Positions 29,468 to 40,359 of a stretch of DNA of 64,000 nt are shown here, in pieces. The number at the start of each line of letters is the position of its first letter. The first letter of the stretch is position 1. This DNA is from a bacterium. Lineage in GTDB: Bacteria; Vulcanimicrobiota; Vulcanimicrobiia; Vulcanimicrobiales; Vulcanimicrobiaceae. Under the pieces are notes generated by a model. That model was not told the origin of the DNA and did not search any database. It saw only the letters and a list, made by a program, of their open reading frames with translations. The stretch is from contig JAJYFL010000011.1 of NCBI GenBank assembly GCA_021790935.1, positions 1 to 64,000 of the forward strand, written 5' to 3'. Position numbers and translations under genes: made by a program.

Positions 29468-30391
29468 ATGATCTCACTGGTGGCGACCGCGGATCTGCTC
29501 CGGGCCGTCGGCCGAGCGCGCGAGGTTAGCATGACGGCATATACGCTCGGCCGCGGGCCCGTCTTCGATGCGCTGGCCTCTGCCTGCCGCCGTGGCGCTC
29601 GCGTTCGGCTGCGCGTCGAGGACCGGCCGTTCGGGGATCCGCTCGGCGGCGTCCAGCGCGCCAACCGGTCGGCCGTAGCGGTGCTGGCCCGCGCCGGTGC
29701 CGACGCCCGGATGGTCGACGCGACCGACGCAGACGGCCCGCCGGTTCACATGAAAGCAGCGATCGTCGACGGCGTTGCGTACTTGGACGACCGCAACTGG
29801 ACCCAAGCCGGCGACACGATCGTGCGCGACGACTCCCCGCGCGACGTGCGTGCGCTGCGGTCGGCGATAGCGGGAGCGGCGCCCCACCCCGAGCCTTCCT
29901 TTTGGACCCGCAAGGCGGATGCCGTCGCGGGTGAGGCCGCGCTCTTGCGCGGTGCAACGAGCGCGCGCAGCGTCGATCTGGAGAGCGAAGCATTCGGCAC
30001 GGCCGGAAAGGCGTACGCCGCGTTGAAGGCGTTGGCTGCAGGCGGCGTGCGCTGCCGCCTGCTCGTCGCGGCGCGCGATCTAAAGCCGCAGGCGCTGCAC
30101 GGGCTGCAGCTCCTCGCGCGTGCCGGCGTCGGCGTTCGAGTCGGTCGTTCGGCCGAAAAGATGGCCGTCGTCGACGGGCGCCGTGCGTGGGTGGGTTCGG
30201 CCAACGCGACTTCGTCGTACTTCCACGGCGATCAACTGGATTGGGGGCTGCGTACGAGCCGCGCACCGATAGCGCGCGCGCTCGAGCGCCGTTTCGAAGC
30301 GGCTTGGGCGACCGGTAAACCGCTAGCGACCGTATCCGATCGGATCGTCCGATCGAAGGATGTGCAAAGTGGAGGTGCGACGCTACAATAG
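29468..30391 (+). CDS. Phospholipase D-like protein
   Basis: 307 residues with two PLD-type repeats. The first has a full HxKxxxxD motif in HMKAAIVDGVAYLDDRNW, while the second is degenerate (EKMAVVDGRRAWVGSANAT, glutamate in place of histidine). Proteins of this shape include cardiolipin synthases and nucleases, which need both motifs, so activity is uncertain. The ATG at 29468 is used; an in-frame start further upstream adds no PLD sequence. It lies divergently from menG (97 bases) and six bases before the porin gene. Confidence 0.7.
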   Translation: MISLVATADLLRAVGRAREVSMTAYTLGRGPVFDALASACRRGARVRLRVEDRPFGDPLGGVQRANRSAVAVLARAGADARMVDATDADGPPVHMKAAIVDGVAYLDDRNWTQAGDTIVRDDSPRDVRALRSAIAGAAPHPEPSFWTRKADAVAGEAALLRGATSARSVDLESEAFGTAGKAYAALKALAAGGVRCRLLVAARDLKPQALHGLQLLARAGVGVRVGRSAEKMAVVDGRRAWVGSANATSSYFHGDQLDWGLRTSRAPIARALERRFEAAWATGKPLATVSDRIVRSKDVQSGGATLQ

Positions 30392-30397
30392 CGAACG

Positions 30398-31504
30398 ATG
30401 CATCGCGCTCTCGTGTTGCCGTTCTCCGCGTCGCTCGCGGTCGTCGCCTCTACCGGCGCGGTTGCGTCGGCCGCGCCGGTTTCGAGTGTGGGATATGCCT
30501 TTACGGCCGCGGCGTTCAACTCGTCGCCGCTCGATGCCCCCGGTACGTTCGGCGGTCCCGGTCCTAGAAATCGCACCGTGGTATCGAACCTCCTTGTGTA
30601 CGCAGCGAGCGTTCTCGGTCGCCTTCGCGTCTCGATTACGGCCGGCACCTACGACTTTCCGACCGTCGGGCAGGCCATCGAGCAGGCGGCGCAGCCCGGG
30701 GCCAACGCGAGCCTCTTCTCTGCCGTTCCGCTAGCCGAAGTGCGGTACGCCGTTGGAGATCACTTGCGCGTCGCCGCGGGGAAGCTGGCGTCTCTCTTGG
30801 GGCAAGAGTCGCCGTTCACGTACCAAAATCTCAATATAGAACGCGGTTTGGCCTGGGCCATGGAGCCGACTATCAGTCGCGGCGTGCGAGCCACGTATGC
30901 CAACAAGCGATTTGCGGCCGCGTTCGAGGCCGACGATGGATATTACTCCGGCCACGATCGTGCGGTCGAATGGCTCGTCGGGTACCGGACCTCGTCGAAC
31001 GCCCGCCTGCAGTTTGCCGGCATCCTCCCCGGGCGCGGCGCCGCGCCGAATCCAACGGCCGCCGTCGCCAATAAGGCCGAGTACGACCTGATGTATACGC
31101 GCGAGATCGGTAAGCTAAGACTTGAGCCGTACCTGCTCTTGGCGAACTCCCCGGCATCCGCTCGGCTAGGGTACGCGTGCGACGAAAGGGCGAGGGCGGT
31201 GGTGCTGCTGGGCTCGTACGCGTTCTCAAGGACGTTGTCGCTCGCGGTCCGTTACGAAGATGCCGAGAACGACAGTTCGCCGTCCGATACGGGTCGAAAC
31301 GCCGATCTCATCGGATACGGTCCGGGGAGTTCGGCGCGCTCTTTCACGATAACGCCGACCGTCCGTATCCGTCGCGACGTGCTACTCCGGCTAGAATACT
31401 CGCGAGTATCGGTTTCGTCGCTTGCGCGGGGCTTGGGCTTCGGCTTGCGAGGAACCGGGAGCGCGCAGAGCCGTTTTGGGATCGAGTTCGGAGTGGTCCG
31501 GTAG
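30398..31504 (+). CDS. Outer-membrane beta-barrel porin (BBP2-like)
   Basis: 368 residues. A signal-like N-terminus ends about AVASA (residue 25). The mature protein alternates like beta strands, ends in a strand with a terminal aromatic/Arg pattern (SRFGIEFGVVR), and contains the BBP2-like AGKLASLLGQESPFTYQNLN and SRGVRATYANKRFAAAFEAD. Beta-barrel porins of this group often sit next to kdp genes. It may supply outer-membrane potassium passage for the Kdp pump; that is inferred. The upstream gap is only six bases; TACAAT at 30384-30389 could be a -10 element. Confidence 0.75.
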   Translation: MHRALVLPFSASLAVVASTGAVASAAPVSSVGYAFTAAAFNSSPLDAPGTFGGPGPRNRTVVSNLLVYAASVLGRLRVSITAGTYDFPTVGQAIEQAAQPGANASLFSAVPLAEVRYAVGDHLRVAAGKLASLLGQESPFTYQNLNIERGLAWAMEPTISRGVRATYANKRFAAAFEADDGYYSGHDRAVEWLVGYRTSSNARLQFAGILPGRGAAPNPTAAVANKAEYDLMYTREIGKLRLEPYLLLANSPASARLGYACDERARAVVLLGSYAFSRTLSLAVRYEDAENDSSPSDTGRNADLIGYGPGSSARSFTITPTVRIRRDVLLRLEYSRVSVSSLARGLGFGLRGTGSAQSRFGIEFGVVR

Positions 31505-31506
31505 CG

Positions 31507-31590
31507 ATGATCGAGACGCTGCTTCTGCTCCTCACCGTTGCATTTTTCGTTCTCATGGAACTCTACGCGCGCGCTTGCGAAAGGTTGTAA
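31507..31590 (+). CDS. 27-residue membrane peptide preceding kdpF
   Basis: A single hydrophobic helix (ETLLLLLTVAFFVLMELY) ending in ACERL. Tiny membrane proteins ending in a charged CERL- or CDRL-like tail are often found immediately before kdpF, where they are annotated only loosely as potassium-transport related. It starts two bases after the porin stop and its stop is one base before the kdpF ATG, so it is in the operon. Function unknown; probably a Kdp accessory peptide. Confidence 0.7.
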   Translation: MIETLLLLLTVAFFVLMELYARACERL

Positions 31591-31591
31591 G

Positions 31592-31678
31592 ATGACCGAC
31601 GCCGTTATAGGTTTGGTGTTTGCCGTGGCGGCACTCGCGTATCTGACGTACGCCATGATCCGTCCCGAACGGCTGTAG
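31592..31678 (+). CDS. kdpF: Potassium-transporting ATPase subunit KdpF
   Basis: 28 residues, one transmembrane helix (VIGLVFAVAALAYLTYAMI) and a RPERL tail, the typical KdpF form. KdpF stabilises the KdpABC complex. It begins one base after the upstream mini-gene and ends nine bases before kdpA. Confidence 0.88.
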   Translation: MTDAVIGLVFAVAALAYLTYAMIRPERL

Positions 31679-31687
31679 TACCGAGCT

Positions 31688-33388
31688 ATGACGTTACCCG
31701 GATGGCTTCAGGCCATCGCGCTCTTCTCCTTGGTCGCCGCAACGACCAAGCCCATCGGTCTCTACATGGCTCGCGTTTTCCAGGGCGAACGTACGTGGTT
31801 ATCACCCGTGCTGCGCCCGCTCGAGCGGGCCGTCTATCGCTTGTGCGGCGTTGACGAAGCGCTGGAAATGCCCTGGCAAACATATACGCTTGCCATGCTG
31901 GCCTTTTCCGCGGTGGGCTTCGTGTGGTTGTACGTGCTACTGCGCACGCAAGCCTGGCTCCCGTTCAATCCGCAACGTTTTCCGAATCTGCCTCCCGCTC
32001 TCGCTTGGAATACAGCCGTCAGTTTTCTTACGAACACGAACTGGCAATTCTATGCCGGAGAGAGCACGATGAGCTACCTCTCCCAGATGGCCGGGTTGGC
32101 GTGGCACAATTTTGTCTCTGCCGCAACGGGGCTTGCAATCGCGATAGCGCTGATTCGCGGTATCGCACGCACGGCATGTAAGACGATTGGAAATTTTTGG
32201 GTCGATCTGATCCGCGCGTGCCTGTATGTTCTCTTGCCGGTGTCCTGCGTATTTGCAATCGTGCTCGTGGCACAGGGCGTGCCTCAGAATTTCTCGCCGT
32301 ACCGTAGCGTCAGGACAGTTGAGGGATACCGGCAAACGATCACCGGCGGCCCGATGGCCTCGCAGGAAAGCATCAAAGAGCTGGGTACGAACGGCGGCGG
32401 CTTCGTCAACGCCAACTCCGCGTCGCCAAACGAGAACCCGACGCCGGTCAGCAATTTCTTGGAGATGTTCGCGATACTCGCCTTCGCGGCGGGCCTAACC
32501 TACACGTACGGATACATGGTGAAGGACACGCGCCAAGGCTGGGCGCTGTTCGCCGCGATGTTCGCGCTCCTAGCGGTGGGTTTTAGCGCAACCTACTGGG
32601 CGGAATCCGTAGGTAACCCCATCGTGCACCATCTGGGTATCGCGGGCGGCAACATGGAGGGGAAAGAGTGCCGGTTCGGGGTCGCCGGCTCCGCACTCTT
32701 TGCGACCGTTACGACCGCAACGTCGTGCGGCGCAGTCAATTCCATGCTCGATTCGTTTATGCCGCTCGGCGGTCTCGTGCCGCTGGTCAACATGCAACTT
32801 GGCGAAGTCGCCTTCGGCGGAGTCGGCAGCGGGCTCTACGGTATGATCGTCTTCGTCGTCATCACGGTCTTTATTGCGGGCCTCATGGTCGGGCGGACCC
32901 CGGAGTTTCTCGGTAAGAAAATCGAACGCCGAGAAGTGCAGCTCGCGCTGCTCGCTCTGTTGGTTACGCCGCTGCTCGTGCTGGTGCCGACCGCAATCGC
33001 CGTGCTCCAGCCGCAGGGGCTTGCGGCGCTCGGTAACGGCGGGCCGCACGGGTTCTCCGAGATCCTTTACGCCTTCTCGTCAACGAACGCCAATAACGGC
33101 AGCGCCTTCGGCGGACTCGGAAGTAACCTCTTTTACGACGTTGCAACGGGGATAAACATGCTGCTCGGACGCTTTCTCGTCGCTATCCCGGTGCTGGCGC
33201 TGGCCGGATCGTTGGCCGCCAAGAAGGCCGTAGCGCCTGGGGTGGGGTCGTTTTCGACGTCGTCCGCGATGTTCGTCGGCTTATTGCTCTCGACGATCGC
33301 GATTGTCGGAGCGCTTACCTTCTTACCCGCCGATGCCCTCGGCCCGGTCGCCGACCACCTGTTCGTTTTCCAGGGAAAGACGTTCTAG
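31688..33388 (+). CDS. kdpA: Potassium-transporting ATPase subunit KdpA
   Basis: 566 residues, the usual length. KdpA is the potassium-channel-like subunit of the high-affinity Kdp pump. The four selectivity-filter repeats are visible: [40 protein letters not shown] and [13 protein letters not shown]. Ten membrane segments are evident. The stop overlaps the GTG start of kdpB. Confidence 0.97.
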
Positions 33389-35451
33389 TGATTCCGGCAC
33401 GTCGTCTGCAGCGCCGGCCCAAGGAACGCCCGCTTTTCGATACGAAAATTCTCGCGGGAGCGCTTGGCGATTCGCTGCGCAAGTTAAATCCGCGCTGGAT
33501 GGTGCGCAACCCGGTCATGTTCATCGTTGAGCTCGGTGCGTTTCTAAGCACCTTCTTTTGGATGCGAGATGCCGTGCGGCGCAGCGGATCGCCGGGCTTT
33601 GATTTTGCTATCGCCATCTGGTTGTGGTTCACGGTGCTCTTCGCGAATTTCGCCGAAGCCGTCGCTGAAGGCCGCGGCAAGGCGCAAGCGGAGTACCTGC
33701 GCCGCACGAAATCCGATACGCTCGCCAAACGCATGCTGGAGGGCGGTCGCTACGAACCCGTCTCGGCCGGCACGCTCGTTAAGGGCGATGTCGTCCGCGT
33801 CGACGCGGGCGAGTTGGTACCCGCCGACGGCGAGATCGTCCAGGGAGCCGCCACCGTCGATGAGTCGGCGATAACCGGCGAATCGGCACCGGTCGTGCGC
33901 GAGGCGGGAGGCGATCGCAGCGCGGTGACGGGCGGTACGCGCTTGTTGTCCGATTGGGTTCTCGTACGTGTGAGTACGAACCCCGGCGAGAGTTTCCTGG
34001 ATCGCATGATCGCGCTCGTCGAAGGCGCACAGCGACAAAAAACGCCGAACGAAATCGCTTTGGCGATCTTGCTTGCCGGCCTGAGTATCGTTTTTCTCGT
34101 TGCGGTGGCGACCTTGTTCCCATTTATGCGCTACGCCGGTGCGGCGCCGAGCATTACGGTTCTCATCGCACTGCTCGTTTGTCTGATTCCCACGACGATC
34201 GGCGGCCTGCTTAGCGCGATCGGCATTGCCGGGATGGACCGTGTTATGCAGCGTAACGTTCTCGCAACCAGTGGCCGCGCCGTGGAAGCCGCAGGTGACG
34301 TCGATACGCTACTGCTGGATAAGACCGGGACGATTACGCTCGGAAACCGCCAGGCCGTGGATATCGTCGTTGCAGAAGCAGCCGGGGCCAGGGAGGCGGC
34401 ACGGCTCGCGTATTATTCCTCCCTCGCCGATGAGACGCCCGAGGGGCGTTCGATCGTGGCGCTCGCGCGCCGTATCGCGTCGCTGCCCGAAGAGGCCGTC
34501 CAGCCGGACGGCGCGGTCTTCATACCGTTCAGCGCTTATACGCGGATGAGCGGCGTCGATCTGCCCGATGGTACGAAGATTCGCAAGGGAGCTCCCGACT
34601 CGATTCTTGCATGGACTCGGGAGCTCGGGGGCGACGGGCAGACGTCGCTCGCTTCGGATGTCGAGCGCGTGGCGCGCAGCGGCGGCACGCCGCTGCTGCT
34701 TGCCGAGAACGATCGGGTTATCGGCCTAATCGCGCTGAAGGACGTCCTCAAGCCTCGGATGCGGGACCGCTTCGCACGCCTGCGCACCATGGGAATCCGT
34801 ACGATCATGATAACGGGAGACAATCCGCTGACAGCGGCTGCGATCGCTCACGAGGCGGGCGTAGACGAATTTCTCGCCGAGGCGACGCCCGAGACCAAGA
34901 TGCAACTCATCAAGCGCGAACAGGGCTCCGGACGGCTCGTCGCTATGACGGGCGACGGCACGAACGACGCACCGGCTCTCGCGCAAGCGGACGTCGGCGT
35001 CGCCATGAATTCGGGAACGCAGGCCGCAAAGGAAGCGGCCAATATGATCGATCTCGATTCGGACCCGACGAAATTGATCGAGGTCGTCGAGATCGGTAAA
35101 CAGTTATTGATGACCCGTGGGTCTCTAACGACGTTTTCGATCGCCAACGACGTCGCGAAGTACTTTGCAATCCTACCGGCGTTGTTCGTTTCTGCCTATC
35201 CGGCAATGGGGGCGCTCAATGTCATGCACCTCGCTACGCCACAGAGCGCGATCCTCTCCGCCGTCATTTTCAACGCCCTCGTTATCATCGCGCTCGTTCC
35301 CCTTGCGCTGCGTGGCGTGAAGTACGAACCGCGCGGTGCGGCGATCGCGTTACGAAACAACGTTCTCGTATATGGGCTTGGTGGGATCCTCGTGCCGTTC
35401 GCGGGCATAAAAGTAATCGATCTCATCTTGCAGCTCTTACATTGGACGTAG
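33388..35451 (+). CDS. kdpB: Potassium-transporting ATPase, ATP-binding subunit KdpB
   Basis: 687 residues, a P-type ATPase. The phosphorylated Asp is residue 311 in [12 protein letters not shown]. The actuator motif TGES and the hinge [20 protein letters not shown] are present. [16 protein letters not shown] gives the membrane ion-path helix. It starts with GTG sharing a base with the kdpA stop. It hydrolyses ATP to drive potassium uptake through KdpA. Confidence 0.97.
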
Positions 35452-35459
35452 GAGGCCCT

Positions 35460-36041
35460 ATGATACGACAGTTTGGTACCGCGGTGCGCATTACGATCCT
35501 CTCGATAGCGTTGCTCGGGTTTGCCTACCCCCTCGGAATTACCGCAATCGCTCGGCTCGTTTTCCCGTGGCAGGCCGACGGTTCGTATCTCAAAGTAAAA
35601 GGTCGAGTCGTTGGGTCGGCCATCATCGGCCAGCGCTGGACACAGCCGCAATACTTTCACGGCCGTCCCTCCGCTGCCGGTAAGGAAGGTTACGACCCAA
35701 CGGCAACGGGCGGGACGAACTACGGGCCCGCTTCCAAGAATTTGGTCGCTTCGACGAAAGCGGCGATTGCGGCGGTGCGCGCCGAGAACCCTCGCGCTGG
35801 TGGAATGCCGCCGATGGATCTGGTGACGACGAGCGGCAGCGGAATAGATCCCGATATCAGCCCCGCGGCCGCGTATTACCAGGCCGCGCGCGTGGCCGCC
35901 GCTCGGAAGATTCCACTTGGGACGGTGCGAGCGCTCATTTTCGCATACGAGCGGCATCGCACGATCGGGATTCTCGGGGAACCGCGCGTCAACGTGCTGG
36001 AACTCAACCTCGCCCTCGATAGGACCCTATCGCCGCGTTAA
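35460..36041 (+). CDS. kdpC: Potassium-transporting ATPase subunit KdpC
   Basis: 193 residues with one N-terminal membrane helix (AVRITILSIALLGFAYPLGI) and the KdpC signatures YFHGRPSAAG, SGLDPDISP-like SGSGIDPDISPAAAYYQ, and EPRVNVLELN. KdpC binds KdpB and raises its affinity for ATP. The ATG at 35460 follows TAGGAGG with a five-base spacer. The 3' end overlaps the converging KdpD-like gene by 15 bases. Confidence 0.95.
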   Translation: MIRQFGTAVRITILSIALLGFAYPLGITAIARLVFPWQADGSYLKVKGRVVGSAIIGQRWTQPQYFHGRPSAAGKEGYDPTATGGTNYGPASKNLVASTKAAIAAVRAENPRAGGMPPMDLVTTSGSGIDPDISPAAAYYQAARVAAARKIPLGTVRALIFAYERHRTIGILGEPRVNVLELNLALDRTLSPR

Positions 36042-38111
36042 CACCAACAGTTCGAGCGCTCCTGCGTCGAGAACGCGGCGGGCGAACGCGTTCCTTCGCG
36101 GCCAGCGCGGGATCCGGAGCGTCGTAGCTACTGCAACCACCGTTTCCGGCTCCATACGCGCGAGTTCGATGATGCGACGCGGCGTGTCTTTGACGGTCTC
36201 CTGGTGCCAGGTGGCGTTGTTTTTGCCCGTTTCCAGGCGTAGGCTTTCGATCAACGCGCTGGTGGGTGCGTCGCGAGGTTCCGTTATCATAGCAACGCCG
36301 AAGCGCACGCCTAATCGCGCGGCAATTTGACTACAGCGGCGAATTAGCGCGGCGTCTTCGGTGCGTGGACCGGCGCAGAGCAAGAGGCGTTCGAACGGGG
36401 AACGCGGCCGTTCGCGGCGGCGGGCGCGCAGCGCCTCCCGGAGCGCTAACTCGCGTAACGCCGTAAGATTGTCGATCCTAAAAAAACTGGACAACGCCTG
36501 TTCCACGCGTTCGGCGGGGTAGATCCTGCCCTCTCGGAGGCGAGATCGAAGCGTGTGCGGCGTCACGTCGATCAGAATGACTTCGTTCGCTAGCGCAAGG
36601 ATTCCGTCCGGAAGGGTCTCGCGAACGATAGTTTTTGTGAGTCTAAGGACCGTATCGTTGAGGGCCTCCAGGTGTTGTACGTTGAGCGTGGTGATCACGT
36701 CGATCCCGGCGCGCAGAATTGCGAGCACGTCTTCGAACCGCTTGCGAGAGACGGAGCTGGGAGCGTTCGTATGCGCGAGCTCGTCGATGAGTGCCACGTC
36801 TGGGTGCAGCGCGATCACACCGTCACGGTCGAGCTCTTCGTAAAGCGTTCCATCCTTTTGGACGAGCTTGCGCGGGAGTACGCGAAGGCCGTCAACCATT
36901 GCCGCCGTCTCAGAGCGGCCGTGCGTTTCGATGAACGCCGCCAGCACGTCGACACCATCGGCCTGAAGTTGATGCGCCCGGTCGAGCATGGCGTACGTCT
37001 TCCCGCAGCCTGCGACGGATCCGAGATACACGGTTAGACGACCGTAGTTCCCGCGCCCGAGCATATCCGCAGACCGAGGGATGCCTAGATACGTCTTGCT
37101 GGGATCGATTACGAAGAGATCCCGGTCCTGGTGCCGGTTAGCGAGCCGGCGGGCACCCTTGCCGTCCGGGACGATCATGAGGCTTGCGCGCAGGCGCGGA
37201 ACATCTACTCTTGCGGAATCGGGCGGCTCGCTCAAGACCTCCGCCCCGACGCGCTGCGCGCATTCATCCAGCAGCGAGCGATCGACGTTACGGTCGGGGC
37301 GCAGTTCGAGCGATAAATCGAGCGCCCGCGCGAGCGCTGCGGCTCGCTCCACAAAGGAATCGAGTGGCGTGCTTGCCGGCACGAAGGCGATGGCTGTCGA
37401 GACGCGCTCGGCCGACACGTTGGGGATGGTGACGTTGTCTACGGCCTGGAGCAGCAGTTCTCGCAAACCGTAGAGCGTGCGTTCCGAAAAAACGCTCTGC
37501 AGCGCTCCCTTCACATCCGTGTCGTTCACGACTTTTCCGGATCGCAAGCGGCTCTGTAAGAGCCGTGGAGAAACGTCCAGAGCTACCACTTCATCGGCGC
37601 TTTGTAGAAAGCGGTCGGGAACCAGGGCGCGTAGCGCATGTCCGGTCAGTCTCTCCGCGGCAGGGGCTGCGCTCTCGAGGTGCGCGATGTTGAACGCACA
37701 GAGTACGGAGACTCCCATCTCGCGCAACGCCAGCGCCTCCTCCCACCGCATCGCATAGCGCGAGCCGGGAAGGTTCTCGTGAGCGACTTCGTCGAGCATG
37801 AGGACCTGTGGTTTGCGCGCCAGGGCTGCCTCGAAGTCGAACTCCTGGAACGTGCGGCCGTTTCGCTCGACGGAACGTGCGGGGATGCGGGGCAGCCCGG
37901 CGGCGAGACGCTCGAGATCCGGGCGCCCCTTCGTCTCGATCCACCCGATGACGCCATCGCGCCCCGAGCTGCGCAGGCGCGCGAGCTCCTGTAGCAGGCG
38001 CCGCGTCTTTCCCGCGCCGGGTGCGGCCGAAAGGTAGACGACCAGGCGCGGCCGTTCGCCGTACTCGGCGAGCAGGTTCTCTGCGTCGGGACGCAGGTCT
38101 CCGGGCTCCAT
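36027..38111 (-). CDS. Tandem KdpD sensor-domain protein without a kinase
   Basis: 694 residues. Two copies of the KdpD N-terminal domain occur, the first with a P-loop SAAPGAGKT (28-36) and the second with GSVAGCGKT (364-372). Each is followed by a FDEVAHEN/IDELAHTNAP-type DE[VL]AH segment and a UspA-like stretch (about 235-345 and 575-694). No membrane helices, GAF or histidine-kinase domains follow. Known KdpD has one such module attached to its kinase. Here the kinase is encoded separately and divergently, 53 bases away. It presumably senses ATP, potassium or c-di-AMP as KdpD does, but the partner is inferred. Confidence 0.85.
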   Translation of the reverse strand: MEPGDLRPDAENLLAEYGERPRLVVYLSAAPGAGKTRRLLQELARLRSSGRDGVIGWIETKGRPDLERLAAGLPRIPARSVERNGRTFQEFDFEAALARKPQVLMLDEVAHENLPGSRYAMRWEEALALREMGVSVLCAFNIAHLESAAPAAERLTGHALRALVPDRFLQSADEVVALDVSPRLLQSRLRSGKVVNDTDVKGALQSVFSERTLYGLRELLLQAVDNVTIPNVSAERVSTAIAFVPASTPLDSFVERAAALARALDLSLELRPDRNVDRSLLDECAQRVGAEVLSEPPDSARVDVPRLRASLMIVPDGKGARRLANRHQDRDLFVIDPSKTYLGIPRSADMLGRGNYGRLTVYLGSVAGCGKTYAMLDRAHQLQADGVDVLAAFIETHGRSETAAMVDGLRVLPRKLVQKDGTLYEELDRDGVIALHPDVALIDELAHTNAPSSVSRKRFEDVLAILRAGIDVITTLNVQHLEALNDTVLRLTKTIVRETLPDGILALANEVILIDVTPHTLRSRLREGRIYPAERVEQALSSFFRIDNLTALRELALREALRARRRERPRSPFERLLLCAGPRTEDAALIRRCSQIAARLGVRFGVAMITEPRDAPTSALIESLRLETGKNNATWHQETVKDTPRRIIELARMEPETVVAVATTLRIPRWPRRNAFARRVLDAGALELLVLTRR

Positions 38112-38126
38112 CGTCTCTCCCCCAGA

Positions 38127-38158
38127 GCCCCGGTGCCCCTGCGCAGGGGCTCCGGGGC
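38127..38158. promoter_or_regulatory. 32-base near-perfect palindrome between the KdpD-like gene and the histidine kinase
   Basis: Arms of 16 bases (38127-38142 and 38143-38158) pair with a single mismatch. The palindrome fills most of the 53 bases between two divergent starts (38111 and 38165). It may be an operator for a dimeric regulator or form a hairpin in the leader of one or both transcripts. No promoter is otherwise readable in the gap. Confidence 0.75.
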
Positions 38159-38164
38159 GCGCGT

Positions 38165-39730
38165 GTGAACCGCGTATCTGTGTTGCGGGCCCTTTGTTAC
38201 GGACTACTCCTCGCGGCCTGGGTCTTGGACCTGTTCACTCCCCAGATGTTCGTCGCCGCCATCCTTTTCAACGTCCCTATCGCTCTGAGCAGCCTAGCCC
38301 TACAGCGGCGACTGACGGTATCGCTCGTCATTGCGGCCGAGGTCGCCAACGTCGTGACGGGGTACGTAAACGGCGCTCAGGCGGGTTACCGCTTCGAGGC
38401 CATCGCCATCGGGGACCGCATGTTGCTCGCGGCATCGTTCTTGCTTGTCGGCTACATGACGTTGACGACCCAACATCTTGCTCGCAGCGCGGGCCTCTCC
38501 GAAGCACGTGCGGAGCAGGCGCAGCGCGAGCGCAGGTTACGGTTATCGATCGACCGCGTGCGCGAAAGCCTGAATCTCGAATTAGTGTTGCGCGCCATCG
38601 TTAGGGAAGCCGTCGCGTTCTTTCACGCACAACGCGCCACGCTCGTGGTCGAGGCACCGTCGCTGGACGCGCCAAGACGCTACGTGGCTGAGGTCGGCGG
38701 CCGCGAGGTGGTCGTAGAACAGACACCGCTACCATCCGAGGTGCGCTCGCTTCTCGCACGTGACTGGTCCTCCGGAGGCGTGCTCCGGCGCGACGGAAAC
38801 GAAAGTATGGCACGGTACGGGCTCGAGGCACTCGGAGCCGCGGTTGCGCTGGTTACGCTGATTCGTGCGGAAGAGCGGGATTACCAGCTCCTCGTAACGG
38901 CGCAGGATCAGAGATGGGAGCGCGACGACGCCAGGATGCTCAAGTCGTTCGCCGAACGGTGCGAGGTCGCGCTGGATCAAGCTCGTTTATTCATGCGAAT
39001 ATCCGCACAGGCCGACCAGATATCGGAGCAGCATGCCGCGTTGCTCGAACGTAGTAACGTCATTCGCGACCTCGTCTACGCCCTTGCTCACGATCTTCGT
39101 ACACCGCTGGTTGCGGCAAACGTTACCATGCAGCAGGCGCGGCGCGGGGCCTTCGGACAACTCCCCGAACGCTACGTCGAGGTACTTACAACGAGCATAC
39201 GTTCCAACCAGGAGTTGCAGCGTATGGTGGAGACGCTGCTGCTCGTCGCGCGTTACGAATCTGGGGAAGCGTCGCAAACCTTCGAACCGGTGGACCTCGA
39301 GCGCGTCGCGCGCAACGTCGTCGCCGAGCTCGAGCCTACTGCGAGAGAGCGCTGCGTTCACATAGATATGCGAACGCAACGTACGTTCGTTCTCGCGGAT
39401 GAAGACGAGATGCGCCGCGCCGCACTCAACCTCGTCGCCAACGCGGTCGCCGCTTCTCCATCCGGGACGTCGGTGGTCGTATCGACCGGCGGCGACGGCA
39501 AGCGCTCGGAGTTCACGGTGGACGACGAGGGCTTCGGCGTGCCGCCCGAAGAACGGGGTTCACTCTTCCAGCGCTTCGGCGCGCGGGCGCGCAAACGCGG
39601 AGGGGGAACGGGATTGGGACTGTACGTCGTTCGTTTGATCGTTGAGAAGCACGGCGGCTCGACCGCGTACGAACCACGCGATCGTGGAAGCCGATTCGGT
39701 TTCAGCTTGCCCTCCGCAGAGACGCCTTGA
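38165..39730 (+). CDS. Sensor histidine kinase with GAF domain
   Basis: 521 residues. Four membrane helices lie in residues 5-105 (including LLLAAWVLDLFTPQMFVA), similar to the DUF4118 membrane part of KdpD. A GAF-like domain follows (about 130-280), then HisKA with His309 in ALAHDLRTPLVAAN. The ATP-binding domain has NLVANAVAASP and GGGTGLGLYVVRLIVEKHGG. The GTG at 38165 is the last in-frame start before the membrane part. It ends in a four-base overlap with the response regulator. It looks like the kinase half of a split KdpD. Confidence 0.85.
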   Translation: MNRVSVLRALCYGLLLAAWVLDLFTPQMFVAAILFNVPIALSSLALQRRLTVSLVIAAEVANVVTGYVNGAQAGYRFEAIAIGDRMLLAASFLLVGYMTLTTQHLARSAGLSEARAEQAQRERRLRLSIDRVRESLNLELVLRAIVREAVAFFHAQRATLVVEAPSLDAPRRYVAEVGGREVVVEQTPLPSEVRSLLARDWSSGGVLRRDGNESMARYGLEALGAAVALVTLIRAEERDYQLLVTAQDQRWERDDARMLKSFAERCEVALDQARLFMRISAQADQISEQHAALLERSNVIRDLVYALAHDLRTPLVAANVTMQQARRGAFGQLPERYVEVLTTSIRSNQELQRMVETLLLVARYESGEASQTFEPVDLERVARNVVAELEPTARERCVHIDMRTQRTFVLADEDEMRRAALNLVANAVAASPSGTSVVVSTGGDGKRSEFTVDDEGFGVPPEERGSLFQRFGARARKRGGGTGLGLYVVRLIVEKHGGSTAYEPRDRGSRFGFSLPSAETP

Positions 39731-40359
39731 GCCAGATTCGTGCCGCCGTGGTTGAGGACCACGCACTCACGCGAGCCGGATTGCGTACCGCGCTGCTCTC
39801 CGCCGGCATTGCGGTCGTTGCCGAGGCGTCCGATGGGATCGTCGGCCTCGAGGTGATCGAGCGGGAACGGCCCGATGTCGCCGTGATCGATATCGGGCTC
39901 CCCGGCCGCGATGGGATAGAGCTGACGCAATTGGTTCGGGAGCGGTCTCCTCGCACCCATGTCTTGATCGTTACGATGATCGATTTCCCGGAAGACGTGC
40001 TGGCGGCACTGGCGGCCGGCGCCGACGCATATTGCTTGAAGACTGCCGAACCCGAGAAGATCGCGGAAGCCGTGCGGATTACCGCCGAGGGCGGCGCGTA
40101 TTTTGATCCACGGATCGCACACGTGGTGCTGCGGCGGTTCTCGCCCACGGCGCTATCCGGGGCATCCTCGCCGCTGACCGAACGGGAGACGGCTATCCTG
40201 AGCCTCATAGCCGAGGGGAGGGCGAATCCGGAGATTGCGGAGCGCTTACACATAGGCTTGGGTACCGTCAAAGGTCATGTTCGAGAGATTCTAGGGAAAC
40301 TCTCGGCCAACGACCGGACCCAGGCGGCGGTCGTGGCGCTTCGCCGCGGTTACATCTAG
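39727..40359 (+). CDS. NarL/LuxR-type response regulator
   Basis: 210 residues. Receiver domain with the phosphorylation site Asp55 (VAVIDIGLPG), acidic pocket E10/D11 and Lys105 in YCLKTAEP. The C-terminal DNA-binding domain is LuxR-type: LTERETAILSLIAEGRANPE and LGTVKGHVREILGKL. It starts with TTG overlapping the kinase stop (TTGA). The classical KdpE is OmpR-type, so this pairing is unusual for a potassium system. Target genes are unknown; the kdp operon is the natural guess. Confidence 0.9.
   Translation: MSQIRAAVVEDHALTRAGLRTALLSAGIAVVAEASDGIVGLEVIERERPDVAVIDIGLPGRDGIELTQLVRERSPRTHVLIVTMIDFPEDVLAALAAGADAYCLKTAEPEKIAEAVRITAEGGAYFDPRIAHVVLRRFSPTALSGASSPLTERETAILSLIAEGRANPEIAERLHIGLGTVKGHVREILGKLSANDRTQAAVVALRRGYI

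What the first reader, a model, noticed from the sequence alone, without database searches (positions are those of the whole stretch)
36027..40359. Split Kdp sensor: tandem KdpD modules without kinase, separate kinase and a NarL-type regulator
The KdpD sensor domain is duplicated in a stand-alone protein. A membrane histidine kinase and a LuxR-type response regulator are encoded divergently. Classical systems have KdpD plus OmpR-type KdpE. This suggests a three-part potassium or c-di-AMP sensing relay.
Basis: partly seen in the sequence, partly recalled or inferred. Interest (0 to 1): 0.7.

Follow-up and report, generated by a model that had tools for sequence, protein, structure and literature searches.

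The report
Split, duplicated Kdp potassium control module
In Candidatus Eremiobacterota the usual one-piece potassium sensor KdpD is divided into a doubled stand-alone serine-kinase protein that probably switches the K+ pump off and a separate sensor kinase/NarL-type regulator pair that probably switches the pump genes on through a newly recognised operator; this is a new variant of a known kind of control.

Summary
Confirmed and extended. The 694-aa protein is [KdpD+USP]x2 and is the only KdpD-family protein in its genome. A 4TM-GAF-HisKA-HATPase kinase and a NarL-type regulator are divergently encoded beside kdpFABC. The arrangement is class-wide in Ca. Eremiobacterota. "Without kinase" is outdated: the KdpD domain is an atypical serine kinase that phosphorylates KdpB (PMC11018627), and both modules keep its core catalytic residues. 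Separate serine- and histidine-kinase chains are already published; the fused duplication, the NarL-type partner and the operator found here are not, as far as I could search. The operator (CCGnnCGG-N5-CCGnnCGG, just upstream of a -10 box) matches once in the genome, at the kdp promoter; 39 of 43 near-perfect copies in 149 genomes lie upstream of kdpA. Tandem KdpD without kdpABC occurs at 8 independent places in its tree, each time without the HK, often beside TrkA-type RCK genes. So HK-RR and tandem KdpD look like two arms (transcriptional, post-translational), not one three-part relay. c-di-AMP control is possible (a diadenylate cyclase gene is present) but untested.

The parts
30336..30361 (+). 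Candidate operator CCGATCGGATCGTCCGATCGAAGGAT (two CCGnnCGG-type repeats, 13-bp period)
   Evidence: EM motif in 47 loci; top site in the 64-kb window and no other match with <=3 mismatches in the 2.65-Mb genome
30384..30389 (+). Putative -10 box TACAAT, 22 nt downstream of the operator
   Evidence: Sequence; TAnnnT is conserved at this distance across loci
30398..31504 (+). BBP2/OmpL-like outer-membrane porin, first gene of the kdp operon here
   Evidence: PF07642 E 2.9e-39; beside kdpA in many relatives
31592..31678 (+). kdpF (28 aa), by inspection
   Evidence: Sequence, position directly before kdpA
31688..33388 (+). kdpA
   Evidence: PF03814 / TIGR00680 above cut-off
33388..35451 (+). kdpB, with the TGES motif whose Ser is the KdpD serine-kinase target in E. 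coli
   Evidence: TIGR01497 1028 bits; TGES in the window protein and in 46/46 relatives
35460..36041 (+). kdpC, converging on and overlapping the tandem gene by 15 nt
   Evidence: PF02669 E 8.9e-66
36027..38111 (-). Tandem protein [KdpD-USP]x2, 694 aa
37434..38057 (-). Module 1 (KdpD domain 1): GKT, D/E, R190 kept; W39->R, H63->K
37077..37403 (-). USP-like domain 1 (diverged)
   Evidence: AF2 secondary structure and fold match
36426..37049 (-). Module 2 (KdpD domain 2), canonical serine-kinase residues
   Evidence: 2r8r Z 31.9, rmsd 1.6 over 207
36030..36401 (-). USP domain 2
   Evidence: 7ji4 (S. aureus KdpD-USP) Z 11.7, rmsd 2.4 over 122
38165..39730 (+). Membrane histidine kinase: 4 TM - GAF - HisKA (H309) - HATPase_c
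39727..40359 (+). NarL/LuxR-type response regulator (D55, T83, K105 invariant)

Best explanation
A split Kdp control module with two arms. Arm 1, transcriptional: the 4TM-GAF histidine kinase senses K+ shortage or a proxy (signal inferred), autophosphorylates at H309 and phosphorylates D55 of the NarL-type regulator, which binds the CCGnnCGG direct-repeat operator abutting the -35 region of the porin-kdpFABC operon and activates it (operator shown by conservation; binding by this RR inferred). Arm 2, post-translational: the tandem [KdpD-USP]x2 protein is a soluble atypical serine kinase that shuts the assembled pump at high K+ by phosphorylating the KdpB TGES serine, with module 2 the canonical catalyst and module 1 a conserved, diverged partner; its two USP domains are predicted to pack as an intramolecular USP pair that reads a nucleotide, possibly c-di-AMP (inferred).
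For: Only PF02702 protein in the genome. Class-wide architecture and synteny. Equivalents of G36/K37/T38, D109/E110 and R190 kept in both modules, with lapses concentrated in copies without kdpABC. KdpB TGES 46/46. Serine-kinase activity of KdpD domains established for E. coli and D. geothermalis (PMC11018627). HK present/absent together with kdpABC in 8 of 8 independent pairs, sign test p 0.008; Fisher p 2.7e-19 over genomes, not corrected for kinship. Operator: LLR 348 vs ~32 shuffled; top site of its locus in 29/37 leave-one-out tests; single match in the genome; 39/43 near-perfect copies in 149 genomes upstream of kdpA. RR phospho-residues and HTH conserved. USP1+USP2 match tandem USPs, Z ~16. 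Diadenylate cyclase gene present.
Against: No biochemistry. TGES is conserved in P-type ATPases generally, so it is weak support for phosphorylation. No operator in the 53-bp KdpD-HK intergenic region, so HK-RR autoregulation is unsupported. Tandem KdpD can exist without the pump, so KdpB may not be its only target. RR-operator pairing rests on co-conservation only. Inter-domain packing comes from one AF2 model with pTM 0.60.
Confidence: 0.66

Rival explanations
1. One three-part relay: the tandem protein senses K+ or c-di-AMP and gates the HK by direct contact; HK then phosphorylates the NarL-type RR.
For: Conserved divergent adjacency of KdpD and HK-RR; in one-chain KdpDs the N-terminal part modulates the HK (own knowledge; see also PMC11018627).
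Against: Tandem KdpD persists as an intact ORF at 8 independent places without the HK; HK has its own TM and GAF input.
Confidence: 0.2
2. The tandem protein is a general K+-transport regulator whose main target is not KdpB but the neighbouring RCK (TrkA_N/TrkA_C) proteins or the NhaP-type antiporter; the Kdp link is secondary.
For: In L054, L069, L071, L092 and L110 tandem KdpD lies directly downstream of the RCK pair, with a NhaP-type antiporter next to it in four of these, and both kdpABC and HK-RR missing from the locus.
Against: Catalytic residues lapse in several of these copies and their branches are mostly longer than their sisters', as if constraint relaxed; in the window genome the RCK/NhaP island lies on another contig without KdpD.
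Confidence: 0.2
3. Module 1 is a catalytically dead spacer and the duplication is functionally neutral.
For: W39->R/H and loss of the first Gly of G-X5-GKT in most module 1s.
Against: K37, T38, D109 and R190 invariant, E110 in 65/67, and K at position 63 in 66/67 across the class.
Confidence: 0.15

Closest known systems
Stand-alone KdpD/Usp atypical serine kinase (Deinococcus geothermalis KdpD; NCBIfam NF038185 KdpD_non_kinase)
   Same: KdpD + USP domains, no TM or histidine kinase; serine-kinase residues kept; gene beside kdpFABC; diadenylate cyclase in genome
   Different: Two KdpD-USP units fused in one chain, module 1 diverged; 462.5 bits against the NF038185 cut-off of 550
Published split arrangement: KdpD/Usp ASK plus separate TM/GAF/DHpCA HK (PMC11018627)
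   Same: Serine- and histidine-kinase activities on separate chains; HK has TM-GAF-DHp-CA order
   Different: ASK duplicated; HK TM region not detectably homologous to that of KdpD; partner RR is NarL-type; conserved operator
E. coli KdpD/KdpE
   Same: Controls an adjacent kdpFABC; same domain inventory overall
   Different: One chain, DUF4118 TM domain, OmpR-type KdpE
Tandem USP proteins (UspE, TTHA0350)
   Same: Two USP domains predicted to pack as a pair in one chain (Z ~16)
   Different: Here each is fused to a KdpD kinase domain

Membership tests
Stand-alone KdpD/Usp serine kinase | KdpD domain with Walker A, Walker B (D/E) and adenine-binding Arg | tested here: met
   Present in both modules
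Stand-alone KdpD/Usp serine kinase | USP domain follows; no TM or HisKA | tested here: met
Stand-alone KdpD/Usp serine kinase | Single KdpD-USP unit (NF038185 full-length cut-off 550 bits) | tested here: not met
   462.5 bits, two stretches; tandem
Stand-alone KdpD/Usp serine kinase | Phosphorylates KdpB Ser162-equivalent; c-di-AMP stimulated | not testable with these tools
   Biochemistry needed; KdpB TGES and a DAC gene are present
Canonical KdpD (PRK10490/NF007793) | KdpD-USP-DUF4118-GAF-HisKA-HATPase in one chain | tested here: not met
   423 bits vs cut-off 1123; no HK domains
KdpE | OmpR-type RR (Trans_reg_C) partner | tested here: not met
   GerE/LuxR output domain
TM/GAF/DHpCA histidine kinase of published split Kdp systems | TM-GAF-HisKA-HATPase order | tested here: met
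TM/GAF/DHpCA histidine kinase of published split Kdp systems | TM domain homologous to KdpD's DUF4118 | tested here: inconclusive
   No Pfam hit; hhalign of the TM region alone Prob 0.2%; GAF region aligns at E 1e-5

The most novel reading that the evidence does not exclude
A duplicated KdpD-USP serine kinase acts as an intramolecular pseudo-dimer with two specificities, one for KdpB and one for a second K+ system (the RCK/NhaP island), explaining why it is found without the pump; its partner HK/NarL pair is an independently recruited, non-KdpE controller of kdp acting through a direct-repeat operator.
Probability: 0.25. Interest if true: 0.72.

Novelty: new variant of a known kind. Interest (0 to 1): 0.55.

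Why it matters
It gives a natural separation of the two jobs fused in E. coli KdpD, so pump shut-off and pump induction can be studied apart. The 8 independent pump-less placements are a ready-made test of what a KdpD serine kinase does without KdpFABC. The operator makes a specific RR-promoter prediction in an almost uncultured phylum.

Tried and rejected
Canonical KdpD/KdpE elsewhere in the genome: no second PF02702 protein; OmpR regulators only generic relatives of KdpE. HK as a simple break-off of KdpD's C-terminus: GAF and core align but TM does not, so not shown. Rfam scan of 28-43 kb: nothing at gathering threshold, so no known c-di-AMP riboswitch there. Firmicutes c-di-AMP motif: absent, but also absent from the stand-alone KdpDs compared, so not discriminating. 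Shared operator in the KdpD-HK intergenic region: none; the recurring TTC/GAA there look like ribosome-binding sites. Single origin of the duplication: m1 and m2 are each one clade; the best tree joins m1 with m1 of more distant tandem proteins (96/85), but a class-specific duplication is not rejected (p-AU 0.43). A first module tree had wrongly cut modules for three rows and was replaced. Tandem KdpD in plasmid records: the 40 best rows are single copies by span. Four operator copies not near kdpA were looked at without a clear target.

Full report
WHAT IS THERE. The tandem gene (36027-38111, minus) encodes two PF02702 KdpD domains in one 694-aa chain. An AF2 model built from 48 relatives (pLDDT 86, pTM 0.60) shows KdpD-USP-KdpD-USP. 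Module 2 superposes on the P. syringae KdpD N-terminal domain 2r8r (Z 31.9, rmsd 1.6, 207 aligned), USP2 on the S. aureus KdpD-USP 7ji4 (Z 11.7, rmsd 2.4, 122 aligned), and USP1+USP2 together on tandem USPs such as UspE 5cb0 and TTHA0350 (Z ~16, rmsd 3.5-3.8, 212-216 aligned): a predicted intramolecular USP pair. The neighbouring HK is 4TM-GAF-HisKA-HATPase_c, the RR is Response_reg + GerE, and kdpF/A/B/C lie at 31592-36041.

GENOME CONTEXT. The genome (2.65 Mb, 98.8% complete) holds no other PF02702 protein, a diadenylate cyclase gene, no TrkH, and OmpR-type regulators that match E. coli KdpE at 32-38% over the full length. Named relatives are Candidatus Eremiobacterota/WPS-2.

CONSERVATION. 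In the phylum scan the class of the window carries the tandem architecture almost wherever PF02702 occurs, whereas other families of the phylum mostly carry one-chain or single KdpDs; more distant tandem proteins exist in G131 and G148. Most fetched class loci that reach far enough have kdpABC, tandem KdpD and the divergent HK-RR together. Strong HK matches are found only in the class.

CATALYTIC RESIDUES. PMC11018627 shows that the KdpD domain is an atypical serine kinase using Walker A G36/K37/T38, Walker B D109/E110 and W39/R190, phosphorylating KdpB S162; that shorter KdpD/Usp proteins exist; and that some species carry serine and histidine kinases on separate chains. Aligned to E. coli KdpD, module 2 keeps all of these except W39, which is Y in most. 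Module 1 keeps GKT (66/66 rows with residues), D109 (67/67), E110 (65/67) and R190 (68/68) but has R or H at W39, A/S for the first Gly in most rows, K at H63 (66/67) and other class-specific changes. It is therefore not decayed, but specialised or differently liganded. KdpB has TGES in 46/46, weak evidence because TGES is general to P-type ATPases (own knowledge).

ABSENCE PATTERN. On a tree of 69 tandem proteins, 8 copies without kdpABC lie in 8 separate places, most simply by repeated loss of the pump. The HK goes with the pump in all 8 independent pairs (sign test p 0.008). Seven of these are genomes in which the searches found neither KdpA nor a full HK; the eighth, L069, is a second copy in G086, which has a complete kdp-HK-RR module elsewhere (L068), so there the absence is at the locus. 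The HK state of four fragmentary kdp-linked loci was taken from the genome search. RR absence was judged at the locus only. G015 keeps HK and RR fragments (L033). In L054, L069, L071, L092 and L110 the KdpD gene follows an RCK1-RCK2 pair (TrkA_N/TrkA_C). This matches an island radSAM-NhaP-[kdp module]-RCK2-RCK1-ClpN-VTT-UvrC seen around kdp in many relatives, as if both flanks of KdpD were removed while KdpD stayed. Against a strong functional reading, several of these copies show changes at key positions (L175 m2 K37T, L092 E110D in both modules, L069 m1 E110D, L073 m2 H113R).

OPERATOR. EM on 350 bp upstream of 47 kdp operons gave a consensus near ATCATCCGTTCGGCGGAT (LLR 348 against ~32 for mononucleotide shuffles; kinship of the 47 not corrected). 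The alignment of 37 sites shows a second upstream CCGnnCGG, conservation falling to background outside, then a TAnnnT 22 nt downstream. The window copy CCGATCGGATCGTCCGATCGAAGGAT (30336-30361) is followed by TACAAT at 30384-30389. Left out of the model, the site is still the top hit of its locus in 29 of 37 cases. With 3 mismatches allowed it is the only match in the whole genome (that pattern was written to fit the window site, so the absence of other matches is the informative part). A stricter class-consensus pattern does not match the window itself but gives 43 near-perfect places in 149 genomes, 39 of them upstream of a kdpA. In kdp loci outside the class, which lack this HK, the best-scoring places are weaker and not upstream of the kdp operon where I checked them. 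The location next to -35 fits a class II activator; that the activator is this RR is inference from co-conservation.

EVOLUTION OF MODULES. Modules 1 and 2 are each one clade (100/100 and 100/99); module 2 lies nearest to stand-alone cyanobacterial and Deinococcota KdpDs (84/83); the age of the duplication is unresolved.

VERDICT. A split Kdp control module with two arms. Shown: anatomy, conservation, joint absence, operator. From the literature: serine-kinase function of KdpD domains and the published split arrangement. Inferred: RR-operator binding, KdpB phosphorylation by this protein, nucleotide input. Papers searched held no report of a tandem KdpD-USP, of Eremiobacterota Kdp regulation, or of a NarL-type kdp regulator; the library is open-access only, so absence there is not proof.

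Noticed in passing
30398-31504 (+): A BBP2/OmpL-like outer-membrane porin is the first gene of the kdp operon, downstream of the operator, and sits beside kdpA in about 20 relatives: perhaps an outer-membrane K+ entry route.
   Followed up: partly
31507-31590 (+): A 27-codon hydrophobic ORF lies between the porin and kdpF; function unknown.
   Followed up: no
L075, L091, L107 and contigs of G037, G047, G049, G054, G107: A second, more divergent KdpA (56-58% identity) near the kdp operon, in several genomes with an operator copy of its own 86-1028 bp upstream.
   Followed up: partly
L054, L069, L071, L092, L110: Orphan tandem KdpD directly downstream of two RCK genes, with kdpABC and HK-RR missing from the locus.
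   Followed up: yes
L176 (G000:C9:138000-156000): In the window genome the radSAM-NhaP-RCK2-RCK1 island lies on another contig with no KdpD, and the genome has no TrkH; the channel partner of the RCK pair is unknown.
   Followed up: partly
L154, L157: Public MAG records labelled Rhodospirillales carry this Eremiobacterota-type locus; their contig lengths (9002, 11338) equal those of G089:C228 and G094:C95 in the window's family, so the labels look wrong.
   Followed up: partly
L097, L098 (G131), L104 (G148): Tandem KdpD-USPx2 proteins outside the class, L097 next to kdpBC; shared or separate origin unresolved.
   Followed up: partly
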